From Ciborinia camelliae (lineage: Eukaryota > Ascomycota > Leotiomycetes > Helotiales > Sclerotiniaceae), in the NCBI GenBank assembly GCA_025890175.1, contig JANPYM010000010.1, positions 1,394,427-1,458,426 of the forward strand: a DNA stretch of 64,000 nucleotides, read 5' to 3'. Both the position numbers and the translations under genes were made by a program. The notes beneath the pieces were generated by a model, which saw nothing but the letters and a program-made list of their open reading frames with translations, was not told the origin of the DNA and did not search any database. Every line of letters begins with the position of its first letter. The stretch's first letter is position 1. Below, in pieces: positions 52,791 through 64,000 of the stretch.

Positions 52791-55700
52791 CTAAACTTCA
52801 CTTTCATCAAATATCCATCGTCGAAGGAGGCTATTAAGCCCTTCAGAATATTTTGGGTTGTCCTTGCTTGAGTTAACGTCAAACTCAAGCTCCACTGCCT
52901 TCCCTGATGCTTCATAAGAATCTTCATCTTCCCATTCTTCAGACACTTCTGATTGTTCGTCCTCAATTTCCTCGCCCATGTCTATTATACCTCCCCAAGC
53001 CCCCACATCTTTAAAAAACTCCTCATCATCATCTTGTGCAATTTTCAAAAAGAAAACCTTTCCCGAATCATATGCCAGAGCTATTATTCCCCTATAACTA
53101 TATGTACAAGTAGCTCGATACTCATGAGGGAGCCAAAGCACCTCTCGCCAGCCATCATCTACTCTTTCAGCTATCCAGTAATTTCGTACACAGTATCGAT
53201 CAGGTATTGATAATGTCTTGAACTGAGCATTGTTCTCGTGTGGAAGTACTGAATTGCCAGTCGCCACATTCCAAACGTAAGCTTTGTCGCAACTAAACTG
53301 AAAACGTAGAAACTCGTCATTTGATGAAAATTCTAGCGAGGCGTGTTCTAGATCTGTGTTGTCGTTTTTCTTCGAGGACATGGTTCTCAGAAACTCACCT
53401 TTCTTAACATCCCAGAGATTGGCTGAGATTTCCTCGCAGTCCCTGAGATAGCAGGCAGCTAGTACTCGGTAATTTGATGAACAAGCTAAATAAGGGGTAT
53501 CTTCGTCACCAATATTAATGGTTGACAATAATTCGCCTGTTTGTACATCCCAAAGTTTGCATTGACCAAACCGTGATGCAATTATAATCCTGCTGTCTGG
53601 CGAAAAGGTCCAGGACATCTTCATCCCTTTAAAATCCCTAAAACCTTTCAGTTCATGTAATACTTTGCCCGTAGCCGTATCGAAAAGCGTAATGATGTAA
53701 AAATCCGTGGAAGCTATTATTTCATCGTTCGGCGAAAACAAAACCGGAAATAGTTCAAATTCTCGCCCATTTAGACATGGTTTTGCCTCAAGCTTGTGAC
53801 GAATACCAGTTTTCACATTCCAAAGTCGAATTTTCAATCCCAAATACACTGCAGCTACAAATCTACCATTTGGCGAAAACCAAACTCTCACAACTCGCTT
53901 AATATTATCTCGGACTGGACTTTTGTTAATGATAGGTCTAATATTCCAAAGCCGAGTTGTTCCATCGTTAGAGCATGAAGCTAATTTCGTACCATCTGGA
54001 GAAAAAACAATGGAGTTTATCATATCTGAATGACCACGGAGTATCTGCAACAATTCGCCGGATGTATCCCGGAGGCGGATCGTTGCCGCTCCTATATCAG
54101 AGCCGAAAGCTATCATCTGGCCATTCGGTGAGAGGGCCATACAACTTATTCGAGAGTCTTGAAGTGTCTGTAATGACCTCCCTGTGACTCTGTTCCAAAG
54201 CCGAACATACAGTTCACCCATTGGAGCTAGCATATTTCTGTATGGCGAGAACACAACCGATTTTAAATAATCATATATGGGTTGGTCAGATGTCCACAGC
54301 AATTCATAACCAGTTGTTGAATTCCAAAGCCAAAATGTTCCATCTTTATCACCTACAACTACCTTCTTGCTGTCCGCGGTGAAACGAATTAAACCTGGTT
54401 TATCACAGATCACGTCGTCGAATGTATGCAATAGTCTGCCTGTTTTTGTCTCCCAAAGTCGAACTGTATTATCATCCGAAATTGAAGCAAGTACTTCGTT
54501 ATTTGGCGAAAATACAACTCGGTATGTTGCACTCGAATGACTTTGAAGCTCAGACGGTGACGGAAAAGATTGATTTGCTTGTGCATTCCAAAGTAGGATC
54601 GTTCCATCATCACAACCTGAAGCCATCATTTTGCTGTCGGATGAGAAAACTATTGAACTTGTCGGTTCTGAACGAGCCTTAAATATATAAGGCTTGCCGG
54701 TCCTTGTTTCCCAAAGCAAAATTGCATTGTTAGAGCTCATGGCCACAAGTTTAAGATCAGGAGAAAAGCCAAAAAATCCATTATTTTCGCCATTTTCAAA
54801 TTTTTGTAGCAATATACCAGTTGCTACATCCCAAACTTGAATTGTTCCAGCATTTCTAGATCCGGAAGCAACCATTGTTCCATCTGATGAGAAGGCAACA
54901 ACATCTTGAGCTTCAGCCGATCTACCTTCAAGTATTCGAACCCTAGAGCTCCAATACGATCGTTTTTTTGAGATTTCATAAAGCCAGTTGGGTATGCATC
55001 TTTGAAATGTTAGTCGAACAATACTTTTTTGGGGGGCAAAGAAGAGGGCCGACGAGTATATTTGAAGAGGAGCCTGTTCAATCCCTGCTTGGTTGTGGAG
55101 GATAAACTGCTTGGCATCATGAACGAAAGCATATAGTGCCGGATTTTCAATGTGCTTTGCTACCCATTAGCAAGATTCTCAACACCAGAGAAAAGATACA
55201 AGAGAACAAAAAGTCCGCTTACTGAAGTATGAGATTCCAGAGAGTTTATTGCAATGATGGAGTCTGAAAATCTTTCCATCAAGCTCATAGCTTCAAGCCA
55301 ATGAAGAAAATGTTTCAGTAAAAAGTTATGAAGATTGCGATTGTCACACTCCACAACATTGCCTTTCTCGAAGTGGTCAATCCAGTGACGACATGGATAT
55401 TCGACACGCAGCAGATACTTTGCTTTCTTCTCCGTATCGATCTCAGCAATACGAGTACCGAACTCTTTTATCTCACATCCATTCATTTTCAGACTCTTCA
55501 TCATAGATACTAAGCACCTCACATATAGTTCTCTGTGGGCTTTCCGTTCTTGAAAATCAAATGCTCGTATTTTCAAATATTGTTGGAAAGTTCTGACAAG
55601 AAACAGTGGCCTCAAGGAACCATATGTGTAAAAAGAATAGCAGAAGACAATTCCTTCAATGGCAAGAATAACAAAAAACTCATCGAAAAACAACCCTCGG

Positions 55701-57215
55701 GCCAAGTTGAGAAAAATAATTGTAAGAAGATAGAAAAACACCAAGCCGAAAGGGAACTCTCGACTTTTTGTCTCCAATATCGCCTCCATCGCAATTAGGA
55801 ATCGACTGACAAGATGGCTAAGGAGTATAGGAGACGTAAGAGGCGAAATGCTTCGGAGATGGTCCGTTAGTGATCGGTGAATGAACTGAAATCGACCGCC
55901 AACACTTGTTATGATATGTTCAAGGTCCCGAATGTGTGACTCAACCTCAGTATAAGTGGCATCGATCATCATAGCGATCTCCGGAATTTTCAAAGGACAC
56001 ATAGCAGTGCAAATGCATCGAATTATCTTGAAAGAAATTTCGCGCCTAGACTTTGGTATGTTCAACAGAATTCGATTATACAAATCATCCAATCCTTTTG
56101 GTAGCCATGTTGTAGCGGAGTCGGGATGACTGATGATCTCTCCCAACATTCTCGAATCGTTGTTTAATTCTCTGACTGCTAAACCAACCCATAAGAATGT
56201 TCCATCAGCACGGTCAAGTAGAAGCCGCTTTAGATTCTCTTTATGATCTTCAAACCCCTTAATCCGACCGACACTGTCCGAGACAAAAACCTTGACATCT
56301 TCCAATCGCTTTTCCCTATATTCGTGGTCCAGATTATCCAGGTCGATGTACAACTCCGCTTGAACTTTATCTTTTAAGTGGCGACTAACAAGAACTGTCT
56401 TGAGTTTGCCTCGATCCCTCTCTCCGGTGTCTCCATAAAATCCTTCGAATTTTGCTTTAAGAAACTTGATTGAGTCCTCATCGCATTCATCAAGTCCGTC
56501 CAGAATGAAAAGTATGTTTTTTGGAAACTTGCTGACCATAGATTTGAAGATTCGCCATAAGTTTTCCTTGTGAGAATTACTGACAAGGCTTTGATGTCGC
56601 TGACGGTAGTATTCAAATTCCATCAAAATATCCTCATATAAGTCGCTGTGTGCCTTTAAAAGCTGACATAGCAAGCTTCGAAGGACACACAATGATGTGT
56701 TGCGTTGAGAGTTGCTATTGTCGCAGTAGTACTCCAAAACCAAATGCTCGGGCAGCTGAAGGTTCATACACAAAGCCCAACGGTTCGCCAAATACATAGA
56801 AAGATAAGTTTTGCCTTTTCCAGGACCACCTTGTATCCAAAGGAAATTTTTGGAACCTGGGCCCCACCTTTGCTCAAAAAACTCGATCTCCTTGACCTCC
56901 TTAATCCATTCACAGGTGCTCTTAACTCGATTACCGTTGCGACTACATATCCCTCCTCTATCGGCTTCGGGGTGTGTCAGAAATAATGCATGGTAACATT
57001 TATCCTGCTTCTTCTTTTGTTCTCGAATCACTGTCAAAATCCGATGAAATTAGCCTCGAAAGTTGATAGAATTGGGGTTCACAAAGCATTTTGGGATACT
57101 TGCAGTCGAGGCGTAAAATATTTAAATTCCCCGCTATTGGGCCATTGATCTGAATATTCTCTTTCCCTGCCAACTTGTTTCCACTTGCAGAGAAGGATGA
57201 GATACCTGAAGCCAT
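52791..57215 (-). CDS. NLR: amyloid-like motif - NACHT - WD40 (3 exons, 1434 aa)
   Basis: Exons 57215..57083, 57030..55223 and 55154..52791 (introns 52 nt with GGCTAAT branch, phase 1; 68 nt, phase 0). Residues 12-29 (GNKLAGKENIQINGPIAG) form a short Gly/Asn/Gln-rich motif repeated twice in the divergent neighbour. There follows the usual pre-NACHT leader, then NACHT: Walker A GGPGKGKT (112-119), Walker B ILFILDGLDECDED (~217-230), sensor TVLVSRH, and a winged-helix-like region. A linker containing hydrophobic stretches (~470-520) leads to ALYAFVHDAKQFI and, from ~700 to ~1330, about 13-14 diverged WD40 units (e.g. LASCSNDGTTRLWN, VLASISDDNTVRLWE), enough for two seven-bladed propellers. The C-terminus is acidic. 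By analogy with fungal STAND proteins, ligand binding by the WD40 would drive NACHT oligomerisation and template the N-terminal motif. Confidence 0.92.
57129..57182 (-). other. Amyloid-like signalling motif, NLR copy
   Basis: Codons 12-29 of the NLR, in exon 1. Pattern N-x(7)-I-Q-I-N-G-x-I, shared with the two repeats of the HeLo-like effector. Confidence 0.7.
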
Positions 57216-58432
57216 CTAATAGTCGGAAGTTGGAATAGGAGGTGACAAAACCTTAGTGGTATTTGGAAATGTTTGTGGCAACGAAAGGATTCAAACACGC
57301 TCAAGCTGTAGCTCGTATCAACCGTAAGAGAGGGTAAAGTTGATTAAATAAGTCGAAGAATCCAAGCAATCAAACAAACATGGTTCCATTGCCACAAGCA
57401 GCCTGAGTGTGCATAACTAGTTAGGTAAGGTCACTTCGCCTTTTCTTTCTTGCGAAACGCTTCTTTTTTTTGGAAATCTTCATATTTTCGATTTGTTAAT
57501 CTTTGAACAATTTCACAAGTACATTTCTAATTTATAGCTTTAACTGTTAGTATAGATTGAAGTTTAAAAAATATTTATAATATATATTTTTTTTTAATAC
57601 AATGTCAAGAAAATAACTTCTTCTAAAATATGTAAAAAGCATAGGAGATTGATTAAAGTAGAAGTAGCTTCGTAGTGTTCTACGTACTATTTTCTTATAC
57701 CACAGGTGCGCCCGATTAATCAATCGGACGCCCAGTTCTAATGGGGCTTAACAGATATTTAGATTGTCTCCTCCATCCATTACCAAAAGATTGAGGAGCC
57801 TCGGTGAAACTTTTTGCATTCCTAGAATCAGCCTTAAAGAGTCACGAACACGTCAGCCCTTAGTCCTTTTAGTTGACCTCAACAGCTAGTGATATGTTTC
57901 AAATACGGAGTTGAAGTGGTGAAAAGATAGAGAATAAGGAAGGGATATGAAATATAGTTTTGGATCAAATCCTTTCAAGCTTTTAGAAAATATATATCGC
58001 ATAACCTCTGTTTAGCCAATGTAAGTGTGAAGAGCCCCTTCTTTCATGTATCAATTTGCATGTAGTTGGAAAAAGTCACCTGCTCCCCTCCAGTCCATCC
58101 TGAACAAAATTGTAGGGGATGAACGTTTGAAAAGTTCGCATCGCATCATTCTTTTGGCAAGTGACACTGGTTATGCATGGAGCTGCAATAGGTTACAGGC
58201 GCAGCAGCCAAATCCAATTATACCCATGATCAATAAATTGCTTGCAGCTGCAGGCATAAATGGATTAAAAACCTCGTTTTCAATGAATTAAGTACAATCC
58301 TTATATCATATAATCGTATATGCATGAGCAGGCTGCTGTAACTCTCAGCAGAATTCGACTTTTCTTTAATCGTTCCCATTGTCGGCTGGACTTGTGGCAA
58401 CTATTATTGTAAATTCCTATGCTCAAGACAGA
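57216..58432. promoter_or_regulatory. Divergent intergenic region between NLR and effector
   Basis: 1.2 kb separates the two start codons, so both promoters lie here. An AT-rich patch (57470-57620) is the main feature. A weak reading frame at 58046-58291 shows no recognisable protein. No named regulator site is evident. Confidence 0.45.
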
Positions 58433-59502
58433 ATGGTAATCTTTCTCAGCATTAAACTGGAGAACAAACATACTAACAGTGAGCTTTAGGCTGGACTCGA
58501 GGTTATTGGAGCTATCTCTGCCGTGTCAACCTTGCTAGAATCGACAATCGGGCTCATCGAAAGGCTTCGCAAGACGTACGATGACCAGAAGAATTCTACC
58601 CAAACTCTCGAAAGACACGTCGTCGACATCCAAGGAATTCTCAAAATTCTAGACCTTGTCAAGCATGTACCTGATTTAAGGACGGCCGAGGTTCTTTCCG
58701 AAATCGAAAACATTCGCATGATAGCTAGAAAAATTATTGGTAGCTTGGAGGTGATGATTCCAGGGGAGAAAGGTCAAGCACGTCGATTTGCCCATCAACT
58801 TACACGAGGGACACAAGAAAAGGAGGCACTAGCCAAGCTCATGGAGAGACTAGATCGCGCAAAATCAAATCTAGGCTTAAGTCTACACCTTGTCAACGTA
58901 GGAGTTACACGGTTCGTCGGTAATAGTGTTGCGATAAACAAGGATATTCTGACTCGGATTGACACGCTACTTCGGAATACAATTGGAGAAGACGGAGGGC
59001 TAAAGATTGCTGATTTGATCAAGAATCGACCGCTTGAAGGTACGCTGATCCGCCTATTCTGGAGCAAGACTAACAGGTAGAAGGTGACGGTTTGGTACAT
59101 ATTGACACCGGGGATCTTGAATTGAGAATGGCCGACAATGACCTAGCGAAGGAACATTCAGAGGATGCAAGCTCAACTTCCAGCCAGATTGTGTTGGGCA
59201 ATGTGACGAAGGATCAAGCTTTCCAAATTAATGGTTCCGTCGGCGAAGGTAGATGGTGGAAGGTCAATAAACTAGAGATTCGGGACAACGAAGCTGCTGG
59301 AACTAGTATACAAGTCAACCATGCTGTTTCTGAAGATACCATCCAAACATTATTGGCGCATAACGATCGAAGGCGGACTGCCGGTGGTATGGCAACTAAT
59401 TTAGAGATTGGCGTAAGTCTACTACTTGTGTTTTTAGTTTTTCTTGCGGTATGGTTTTGGTGGAATTCCCTCGGGGGTATGGCCGCATGTACGATTCTCT
59501 AG
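58433..59502 (+). CDS. HeLo-like cell-death effector with two amyloid-like repeats and C-terminal TM (3 exons, 324 aa)
   Basis: Exon 1 is only the start codon (58433-58435), followed by a 54-nt intron (GTAATC ... TACTAAC ... TTTAG). Exon 2 58490..59039 and exon 3 59081..59502 flank a 41-nt intron (phase 1). Residues 1-~175 are all-helical: a hydrophobic Gly/Ala start (MAGLEVIGAISAVSTLLEST) and heptad-like helices (LERHVVDIQGILKILDLV), like the HeLo/HELL/SesA domains of fungal NLR-linked proteins. Residues 224-241 (GNVTKDQAFQINGSVGEG) and 253-270 (DNEAAGTSIQVNHAVSED) are two copies of the motif at the NLR N-terminus. The protein ends in a hydrophobic helix (VSLLLVFLVFLAVWFWW). A GTAAGT at 59413 could instead splice this segment out (89 nt; new ending YRERFK). 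Inferred role: membrane-acting executor templated by the NLR. Confidence 0.85.
59197..59250 (+). other. Amyloid-like repeat 1 of the effector
   Basis: Residues 224-241; N-x(6)-F-Q-I-N-G-x-V. Confidence 0.7.
59284..59337 (+). other. Amyloid-like repeat 2 of the effector
   Basis: Residues 253-270; N-x(6)-I-Q-V-N-H-x-V, 29 residues after repeat 1. Confidence 0.65.
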
Positions 59503-61751: not shown

Positions 61752-64000
61752 TCATCCAGTGAGTGTAGTATCACCCTCTCCTTCCTCATCTTCATCTTTC
61801 CTCTCAGCAACAGCTTGATGTGCCGCTCTCTCGGCATATATTCTTTCTCTACCTACTTCGGCAGCATGTAGACTATCGATATAAGTTGTGAACTTCACGA
61901 TTTCGCGAAGCAAGTATGAGGATTTCTTCTCCCAATTAGCCATTGCCTTTTGAGCGTTAGGGTGACGTGGTGTGTACTGCATTACGTTAGTCAGAACTTG
62001 ACACAGGGGAAGGTTAAGAAAACGTACGGCCAAAAGCATGGGACTCCTCAACACATTATGCTTCTGTAATTCTTCCTCGATACTCTGCACGTAGGCTATC
62101 AATGTCTTCAACTGATCCGGCTCCATCAAATTACTAGCCCTCATACTTTGTATTGGAGGACTCCAATCATTTATGAAGATTCTATCACCCGGAAGCCTTG
62201 ACCTGATGCCACCTACATAACCGTGATCCAAGCTCGATCTTAAAGAGCTTTGCATGCTCGGTCGAGCACCGGAAGTTGATGGCCTGGCATTTTGTTCGTT
62301 GATTGCGGTGACCAGGGCGTTATTTACGATATCGTCAGACCAGCCGTATTCGATATTGCTAATACCACCAACAAGGGGATGGTTTGATAAACGAGCACTC
62401 CAATAATTGGCTGTTGTGACAAATTCTTTAACAATATCTGCTGTACCTACTTGGAAGAGATGTACTGCTCCAGTGGGTAGGGAAAGTGCCCATACATGAG
62501 GGCGAGCTTTGGAGTATCCCGGTGAAGGTAGTGAGCTGGCGATTGTTTGTCGCAGTAGAAATGAGCCAAGATTCTCGGCATTTTCTTGCCAGTTTCCACC
62601 ACCAACGACTCCACCACTCGATTTACCCTTAGTCTTGTGTCGCACACTTTTTGTAGAGAATGAAAACAGGCTCATATACCCCTTTTCGATGACAGCAAAC
62701 GTTTCGTTCCAGTTACGATCCTTTGCTTTCTTGTCAAGAGCTTCGAGATGATGTTTGTGCTTGACCATGCCTTCCTTGGCCCATGGCGCACCAGCAAGTT
62801 CTAAAGATTCATCATCAAGTAGAGGGGCAACTCGAAGTTCTTCGTGATCACTACCCCTACTACCTGAACTATGAATCTCTTCACGAATAATTGCTTGACT
62901 AAGAGCATTGGCAAATCCAATAGATTGTTGGTAATCACCTTGGAATACTGAACCAAGAGAATCGACAGACATAGAGGTATGTTTGCCAAGAGAATACTTA
63001 CTCCAAGTACTAGATGATACCGAAGGACTCCACATAGATGATTGATCATCCAAACTAGTTTTACTAGATCCCAGACCTGAATTGGGATATAGACGAGGTC
63101 TTGATCGAGTTTTATTACTCCACTTCCCATTGCTGCGTACAGTTTCTGCCGTTCTTCCACGAACATAACTGGGCGATTCAGAGGGAGCTTTGCTCAAAAC
63201 ACTAGGAGAGCGGCGTAGCATACCATTGGCGATCACTGAAAGAGTACTAGATGATGAAGCCGGTATTTGTGACCTATCGGTGGCACCGAATAGGGGAAGA
63301 CGTTCATTTCGGATAGAGCTGTAGAAATCCTTGAGTACAATCTCAACCTGTACTTCCCAAGTACGTAGGGTTCCACGGAAGGGTGCCTTAACCAAGGGGC
63401 CGCAATCATCCATAGGAGTATCATAATCTAAAGGTGTAGGGGCGTTTGGATTATCAGGATCTTGACGAGGCGCAGGCTTAAATGAAGACCTCCAAGAAGG
63501 TTTCTCAAAAACTTCAATCGACACCGCGTCGGCATTTTCATCATTAACATTGGGATCATCGAAAGCAGAGCTTTTGCCAGGAAGTACCGTAGGCCTGCTA
63601 GGCTCAAATTCATCCACGGAGTCCGATACACTTCGACGAATCGTAGGCATTGTATTCTTGATAAATTGACTGCGAGTCATTTTTTGTTCAATGTCGGCAA
63701 GATGCAAATCTGTATTGAGCAGAAGAACCGAATAGCAAATTGTATGCACAACATCTAGCCATGTTAGTTTGATGCAAATTAGGAAGCTCAGCAAACTTAC
63801 CTGTAGCTTTAAACCCGTGATTGGGATTACTTCGACACCATCTCTTCGAGAAAGCGTCCAATATTCTGTCAACTTGTTGACTTTCACCCTTAAGCACCAA
63901 TCTACCACAAATTACGCGCATTGAAGCAAGTATATTAAGATTCGCAAAGTCGTAAAGGTCCATATAAGCTGTCAGAGTCCTTGCTCGAACAGGTCCCTCA
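61752..64000 (-). CDS. Sec7-domain Arf guanine-nucleotide exchange factor with PH domain (C-terminal part)
   Basis: Runs off the right edge, so the N-terminus is missing. Exons: >64000..63801, 63754..62028, 61976..61752 (introns 46 nt with AACTAAC branch; 51 nt with CTGACTAAC branch, which is also open in frame). The first exon and start of the second give a Sec7 domain: REGPVRARTLTAYMDLYDF-type beginning, DRILDAFSKRWC, HTICYSVLLLNTDLH, MTRSQFIKNTM. After a long Ser-rich linker comes a PH-like domain (~EGMVKHKHHLEALDKKAKDR ... WALSLPTGAVHLFQVGTADI) and a C-terminal helical, acidic tail. Sec7 proteins load GTP on Arf GTPases in vesicle traffic; the Sec7-linker-PH order resembles the fungal Syt1/EFA6-like group. 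The Sec7 glutamate finger would lie upstream of the window. Confidence 0.92.

What the first reader, a model, noticed from the sequence alone, without database searches (positions are those of the whole stretch)
52791..59502. Head-to-head NLR / HeLo-like effector pair sharing an amyloid-type motif (1 copy in NLR, 2 in effector)
Seen: the NLR starts with GNKLAGKENIQINGPIAG; the divergent gene encodes a helical N-terminal domain then GNVTKDQAFQINGSVGEG and DNEAAGTSIQVNHAVSED. Common pattern N-x(6-7)-[IF]-Q-[IV]-N-x-x-[IV]. Known: in Podospora, NWD2 (one motif) templates HET-S (two motifs, within residues 218-289) into a beta-solenoid amyloid, and the genes are neighbours; several HET-s-related amyloid motif (HRAM) families and HELLF-type effectors exist. 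Inference: this is an amyloid-signalling immune pair, and its motif may be a new or little-described HRAM subfamily.
Basis: partly seen in the sequence, partly recalled or inferred. Interest (0 to 1): 0.92.

Follow-up and report, generated by a model that had tools for sequence, protein, structure and literature searches.

The report
Fungal immune receptor–executioner pair, new motif
Two neighbouring fungal genes look like an intracellular immune receptor and the cell-killing protein it switches on, joined by a short shared sequence tag, probably an amyloid "handshake", that does not fit the published rules for known tags of this kind.

Summary
The window matches Ciborinia camelliae (Sclerotiniaceae). 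A NACHT-WD40 NLR and a ~320-residue effector lie head to head. The NLR starts with one motif copy (r0); the effector has a four-helix-bundle N-terminus, then two copies (r1, r2). An NCBI protein equals my NLR splice model letter for letter, so exon 1 with r0 is joined to NACHT in an independent model. Of 25 effector-family proteins found, 17 relatives carry both r1 and r2, the best-conserved stretch of the protein; the other 8 end before it. A pattern from other species' r1 matches the 46-Mb genome three times, only once in an evident gene: this NLR's exon 1. The N-domain is remotely related to HeLo-like/SesA domains. The amyloid reading is inferred from architecture; nothing here shows fibrils. 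The motif is not an HRAM by the published rule as I scored it (0 of 18) and lacks PP, RHIM, PUASM and GDQN signatures (0 of 18). Weak points: r0 is a short match seen in one NLR only, and NLR orthologues were found in far fewer species than effectors. Best reading: a new motif family in the known NWD2/HET-S kind of system.

The parts
52791..57215 (-). NLR gene: exon 1 57083-57215, exon 2 55223-57030, exon 3 52791-55154
   Evidence: equals NCBI NHQ30_008134
57129..57182 (-). r0 motif copy, NLR residues 12-29
55223..57030 (-). NPHP3_N/NACHT exon with P-loop GGPGKGKT
52791..55154 (-). WD40 beta-propeller exon
57216..58432 (.). 1217-base intergenic region between the two divergent start codons
58433..59502 (+). 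Effector gene: ATG-only exon 58433-58435, exon 2 58490-59039, exon 3 59084 (or 59081)-59502
   Evidence: 17 relatives run through the exon 2-3 junction, and 7 relatives start with M[AS]G as the ATG exon predicts
58490..59039 (+). Four-helix-bundle N-domain, remotely HeLo-like/SesA
59185..59259 (+). r1 motif copy (25-residue block)
59272..59346 (+). r2 motif copy (25-residue block), 29 residues after r1
59410..59463 (+). Candidate C-terminal membrane segment (only if the GTAAGT after 59412 is not used as a donor)

Best explanation
A receptor-executioner pair for regulated cell death inside the fungus (allorecognition or defence). Steps: the NLR senses a ligand through its WD40 propeller and oligomerises through NACHT (inferred from the family). 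The clustered r0 tails then fold into a cross-beta stack (inferred). That stack templates the low-confidence, probably disordered r1-r2 region of the effector (inferred). The effector's helical bundle, whose first helix is hydrophobic, then rearranges and attacks the plasma membrane (inferred from HET-S/MLKL). The shared motif, N-x(7,8)-Q-[IV]-N-x-x-[IVT], is best treated as its own amyloid-signalling family, provisionally 'QIN', rather than as HRAM6. Shown here: gene models, domain content, one-plus-two motif layout, conservation of r1/r2, remote kinship of the N-domain to HeLo-like/SesA domains. Not shown: amyloid, templating, toxicity, ligand.
For: Adjacent divergent genes with r0 at NLR residues 12-29. 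r1/r2 is the most conserved 50-residue window of the effector family: mean column entropy 0.56 bits against 1.06 overall, 1.62 for the preceding linker and 1.02 for the N-domain (17 sequences). Of 25 family proteins found 17 hold two copies; the other 8, the window's own P0001 model among them, are 197-227 aa and end before it; with the window's spliced model that makes 18. The pattern for Q[IV]NGP[IV] has 3 genome-wide matches: r0, and two in open frames of 21 and 24 residues; reversed control 4. The r2 pattern has 3 matches: r2, one in a 59-residue frame, one antisense to a ribosomal-protein frame; reversed control 3. AF2: bundle helices 2-30, 35-60, 67-90, 97-139, and pLDDT under 50 for 198-263 and 275-313; a second model shows strand, turn, short strand at nearly the same place in each repeat, at pLDDT 52-67 by blocks. 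The three places in the genome other than this gene that match the B. cinerea effector (E 0.007, 0.018, 0.34) are all N-domains in front of NLR cores (NPHP3_N/NACHT, NB-ARC, NPHP3_N); the family's N-domain profile scores them 22.2, 31.4 and 19.6 bits against at most 11.7 in 9000 shuffles; the last is PF17111, E=3e-14. r0 and other species' r1 share the run QINGPI.
Against: r0 is one sequence. Its profile score is weak (E 0.07-0.1 window-wide) and rests mostly on a six-residue run; 1 of 400 shuffles of that N-terminus also shares a run of six. NLR orthologues at over 250 bits were found only in C. camelliae, B. cinerea and one unnamed sample, though the effector occurs in 14 other named species or strains, so pairing is not shown to be conserved. 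No fibril data. The facing-charge test does not single out the stacked register: 28 opposite/15 like at shift 0, 28/0 at shift -4. Structure matches are generic for helical bundles, and Foldseek gave none at E<=0.001. The effector family itself reaches no HeLo-group Pfam cut-off.
Confidence: 0.68

Rival explanations
1. The motif is a strongly diverged sixth HRAM subfamily: same beta-solenoid as HET-s, sequence drifted beyond the published rule.
For: Same 1 + 2 layout, same gene neighbourhood, repeat period of 29-30 residues that would leave a loop of 8-9 after a 21-residue motif, inside the published 6-18 (PMC4518210). Aromatic residue after r1 in 18 of 18 and after r2 in 17 of 18.
Against: No register puts G19 in both repeats (0 of 18), and the best single-window rule scores (5-7 of 9) lie where shuffled C-termini lie (mode 6). 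r2 mostly has N-H where r1 mostly has N-G. Pfam HET-s_218-289 hits none of 17, but only 38 of 155 HRAM proteins hit it in the paper (PMC4518210).
Confidence: 0.2
2. The conserved C-terminal block is a non-amyloid docking module (short beta-hairpins or a peptide ligand), and the NLR resemblance is convergence of a six-residue run.
For: r0 score is modest. r1 and r2 are more conserved than amyloid solenoids need to be, given the loose sequence constraints described in PMC4518210. NLR orthologues are much rarer than effectors.
Against: The run lies at the extreme N-terminus of the head-to-head NLR, where fungal NLRs carry such motifs, and the r1-derived pattern has no other match in an evident gene of 46 Mb. 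Layout is that of known amyloid pairs.
Confidence: 0.15
3. The motif is a known but unnamed class, such as the Ascomycota motif NLR34 of PMC9815663, whose effector side had not been found.
For: That survey lists a 28-residue Ascomycota class (29 NLRs, no effector matched) among those hard to assign; its logo is in a figure that I could not see.
Against: No effector-side hit was reported for it; Botrytis and Sclerotinia are not named in the main text.
Confidence: 0.12

Closest known systems
NWD2/HET-S of Podospora anserina (HRAM1)
   Same: Adjacent NLR with one N-terminal motif copy; effector with helical death domain and two C-terminal copies
   Different: Motif sequence does not fit the HRAM rule; effector N-domain is nearer HeLo-like/SesA than HeLo; possible C-terminal membrane segment
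HELLF/FNT1 (HRAM5, HeLo-like effector)
   Same: HeLo-like-type domain plus two motif copies, NLR next door (PMC7889193, passages)
   Different: HRAM5 has G19 and Q16 (PMC4518210); here Q-[IV]-N with no G19 in both repeats
PP/RHIM-type motifs (HELLP, RIPK1/3)
   Same: Hydrophobic-Q-hydrophobic core
   Different: N instead of the core G; NxGxQxGxN absent (0 of 18); two copies in the effector, where PP was described as single-copy (PMC4518210)
PUASM and GDQN motifs
   Same: NLR-effector shared N/C-terminal motif in ascomycetes
   Different: Published patterns absent (0 of 18); effector here is not PNP_UDP

Membership tests
NLR-controlled amyloid signalling pair (general kind) | Adjacent NLR and effector genes sharing a motif at NLR N-terminus and effector C-terminus | tested here: met
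   the shared motif on the NLR side is a weak match in one protein
NLR-controlled amyloid signalling pair (general kind) | Motif forms amyloid and templates its partner | not testable with these tools
   no assay; AF2 only hints at strand-turn-strand at low confidence
HRAM | Two pseudo-repeats in effector, one in NLR, loop of 6-18 | tested here: met
   period 29-30, loop 8-9 if the motif is 21 long
HRAM | Conserved G at position 19 in both repeats, with hydrophobic 5, 8, 10, 16, 18 (PMC4518210) | tested here: not met
   0 of 18 in the registers tried (ungapped, repeats in phase); rule scores as in shuffles. My own scoring of the rule as written, not the authors' profile
HRAM | Match to authors' HRAM HMM | not testable with these tools
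HRAM1 (Pfam PF11558) | Profile match | tested here: inconclusive
   0 of 17 at E<=1; whole-genome search also none, but nothing rang in the controls
PP / RHIM | NxGxQxGxN or [IV]Q[IVLC]G core | tested here: not met
   0 of 18 effectors, not in r0 (RHIM core pattern recalled)
PUASM | FxGxGxQxxGxGxF with PNP_UDP effector | tested here: not met
GDQN | NxxxGxQYxxxGxGDQNxVSxxxxQxN | tested here: not met
sigma | About 40-residue motif of three-fold submotifs | tested here: inconclusive
   No sigma-type Pfam model reported; no sigma profile compared directly
HeLo-like / SesA (MLKL 4HB superfamily) | Four-helix bundle with hydrophobic N-terminal helix | tested here: met
HeLo-like / SesA (MLKL 4HB superfamily) | Pfam match above curated cut-off | tested here: not met
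   best SesA E=0.0028 in 1 of 17, below cut-off
HeLo-like / SesA (MLKL 4HB superfamily) | Sequence kinship to bona fide members | tested here: met
   only one of the three matched domains (L013) is itself over a Pfam cut-off

The most novel reading that the evidence does not exclude
A new family of fungal amyloid signalling motifs ('QIN') working in a membrane-resident signalosome: the effector is tail-anchored just after r2 (segment 59410-59463, similar in B. cinerea P0006) and the NLR carries its own membrane-like hairpin between NACHT and WD40 (window 55622-55759; hydrophobic stretch also in P0021 and P0022), so that templating happens at a membrane rather than in the cytosol as in NWD2/HET-S.
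Probability: 0.15. Interest if true: 0.8.

Novelty: new variant of a known kind. Interest (0 to 1): 0.6.

Why it matters
Only a handful of fungal amyloid signalling motif families have been named (HRAM1-5, sigma, PP, PUASM, GDQN in the papers that I saw). A further family with very strict conservation (Q-[IV]-N in all 36 effector copies compared) and the HET-s one-plus-two layout would test whether two-repeat architecture evolved around different cross-beta cores, and gives a receptor-executioner pair in Sclerotiniaceae whose effector persists across Botrytis, Sclerotinia and Monilinia. Peptide-level fibril and cross-seeding assays would settle it directly.

Tried and rejected
Penicillium cataractarum NLR (P0023) first looked like a second r0 (NNKAYKSFQNNAPL); the alignment shows that stretch opposite the pre-NACHT KCYHALFLTHPE of the window NLR, so it is not counted. 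Charge complementarity between stacked r1 and r2 was tried and is inconclusive. PDB sequence searches with the C-terminal exon and the family profile gave nothing relevant (0 and 3 matches at E<=10, best 0.039 to a designed helical protein). HeLo of HET-S is not among the 50 listed structure matches; this shows nothing either way. Foldseek gave no match at E<=0.001. NCBIfam gave nothing of use. Weak Pfam matches such as ARM_CUL7_CUL9 (12 of 17, best E 0.001) were read as helical noise. In one search onwards the motif copies of the relatives were located by the pattern Q[IV]N itself; the alignment, made without it, shows the same Q and N columns invariant in 17 sequences. Literature: in the listings and passages no paper describing this motif or this pair was seen; only open-licence papers are held. 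Seen: PMC4518210 parts 1-3 of 5; passages of PMC9815663, PMC5485727, PMC12261475, PMC12881547, PMC7889193; PMC7885112 only in search listings (both attempts to read passages failed); PMC4262963 not held.

Full report
What is there. The window lies in a 46.2-Mb assembly of 27 contigs. The NLR protein deduced here, exon 1 57083-57215, exon 2 55223-57030, exon 3 52791-55154, minus strand, is identical over all 1434 residues to NCBI protein NHQ30_008134 of Ciborinia camelliae, a Sclerotiniaceae species. It holds NPHP3_N (E=5e-27), NACHT (E=7e-10) and WD40 repeats. Its first 30 residues carry r0. Going the other way from a 1217-base intergenic stretch is the effector: an ATG-only exon, then exon 2 and exon 3. 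Two acceptors three bases apart are possible for exon 3; the one at 59084 gives a reading that lines up without a gap with the Monilinia protein P0003 (compared by eye). P0001, the protein returned for this place, runs into intron 2 and stops, so it lacks both motif copies.

The effector family. Searches with the effector and then with its alignment found 25 proteins (the second search scored only the 7998 candidates sharing most words). Seventeen of them hold two copies of the motif; the other 8 (P0001, P0015, P0019, P0074-P0078; 197-227 aa) end before it. With the window's spliced model that makes 18 sequences. Carriers include seven Botrytis species, Botryotinia convoluta and B. narcissicola, Monilinia fructigena, Sclerotinia nivalis and S. 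trifoliorum, Aspergillus melleus, Pseudogymnoascus sp. and two proteins without a named organism. In 17 aligned sequences (without P0073) the repeats are the best-conserved 50 residues: entropy 0.56 against 1.06 for the whole protein and 1.62 for the linker before them. Across 18 effectors N6, Q14 and N16 of the repeat are invariant in both copies, position 15 is I/V, position 19 is I/V (T in two r2), and an aromatic residue stands at 24 in r1 always and in r2 in 17 of 18. The copies were located by Q[IV]N; the alignment, made without that pattern, shows the same columns invariant. The repeat period is 29-30.

Is r0 real? A profile of r1 and r2 copies, r0 left out, ranks this NLR first of 53 NLR N-termini (6.7 bits, next 1.5), and 1 of 10,600 shuffles of those N-termini reaches that; with r1 alone 7.5 bits, again 1 of 10,600; with r2 alone it does not stand out. 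Among all 1216 frames of the window it is second (E=0.097) or, with r1 alone, third (E=0.072) behind a chance frame of 8.8 bits. The identical run QINGPI is shared with other species' r1, while the window's own r1 reads QINGSV; of 53 NLRs no other shared six; 1 of 400 shuffles of this N-terminus did. In the whole genome the DNA pattern for Q[IV]NGP[IV] matches three times: r0, and two places in open frames of 21 and 24 residues; the reversed pattern matches four times. A pattern for the r2 core matches three times: r2, a 59-residue frame whose coding status I did not settle, and a place antisense to a ribosomal-protein frame (that protein recognised from memory); the reversed pattern also matches three times. 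So each pattern has one match in an evident gene of the 46 Mb, and the two genes are neighbours. Both patterns were written after the motif had been seen, so these are consistency checks and not blind tests.

Which kind of motif? The HRAM paper (PMC4518210, parts 1-3 of 5 read) describes position-19 glycine, hydrophobic positions 5, 8, 10, 16, 18, and two repeats with a loop of 6-18. The layout fits; the sequence does not: no ungapped in-phase register gives G19 in both copies in any of 18 effectors, and the rule scores equal those of shuffled C-termini. The published PP, PUASM and GDQN patterns and the RHIM core (this last recalled) are absent from all 18 and from r0. A second model, of the C-terminal exon, shows a strand and a short strand at nearly matching places of both repeats (37-41 and 51-52; 64-69 and 80-81), at block pLDDT 52-67: compatible with beta-arches, not evidence of amyloid. 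I could not open the authors' profiles, and one unnamed Ascomycota class (NLR34) could be the same motif.

Mechanism. By analogy with NWD2/HET-S as reviewed in PMC12881547 and PMC7889193 (passages), the NLR oligomerises on ligand binding, r0 copies nucleate a cross-beta stack, r1-r2 is templated, and the helical domain is released to damage the membrane. Every step after the anatomy is inference.

Limits and contrary results. NLR orthologues above 250 bits were found only as P0020, P0021 (B. cinerea, whose model begins after the place of the r0 exon) and P0022 (a fragment), while effectors are found in 14 named species or strains besides C. camelliae. P0006 and P0021 report the same longest contig length, 227,709 bases, which suggests that the pair is linked in B. 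cinerea, but adjacency was not seen. The NLR may have been lost, replaced or misannotated elsewhere. Charge complementarity was inconclusive.

Verdict. A well-formed member of the NLR-plus-executioner kind with a motif that does not fit the families described in the papers seen: a new variant of a known kind. Membership in HRAM is not supported; working like HET-S remains the best reading.

Noticed in passing
window 59410-59463 (+): Hydrophobic segment after r2 (Kyte-Doolittle peak 2.56; AF2 helix 108-140 of the exon, block pLDDT 80-96 over its core) resembling the tail of B. cinerea P0006; weaker tails in Sclerotinia P0009/P0010, none in the other relatives' models. A GTAAGT donor after 59412 could splice it out.
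   Followed up: partly
window 55622-55759 (-): Membrane-like hydrophobic stretch between NACHT and WD40 of the NLR (residues 469-514), with a hydrophobic stretch also in P0021 and P0022, none in Penicillium P0023.
   Followed up: partly
effector first exon 58433-58435: The first coding exon is only ATG; several Botrytis database models have unlike N-terminal extensions in its place, probably because gene callers missed it.
   Followed up: partly
G000:C2:1476470-1476823 (-), about 18 kb beyond the window end: A HeLo (PF14479) match with seven stops inside, perhaps a decayed relative near the pair or introns read through.
   Followed up: no
window 61752-63911 (-): The next long frame holds Sec7 and PH domains, an ordinary housekeeping-type neighbour.
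   Followed up: no
effector relatives P0002-P0014 against NLR hits P0020-P0022: Effector orthologues are far more numerous than NLR orthologues in the searches made, as if the executioner persists where its receptor is lost or replaced, or the receptor is misannotated.
   Followed up: partly
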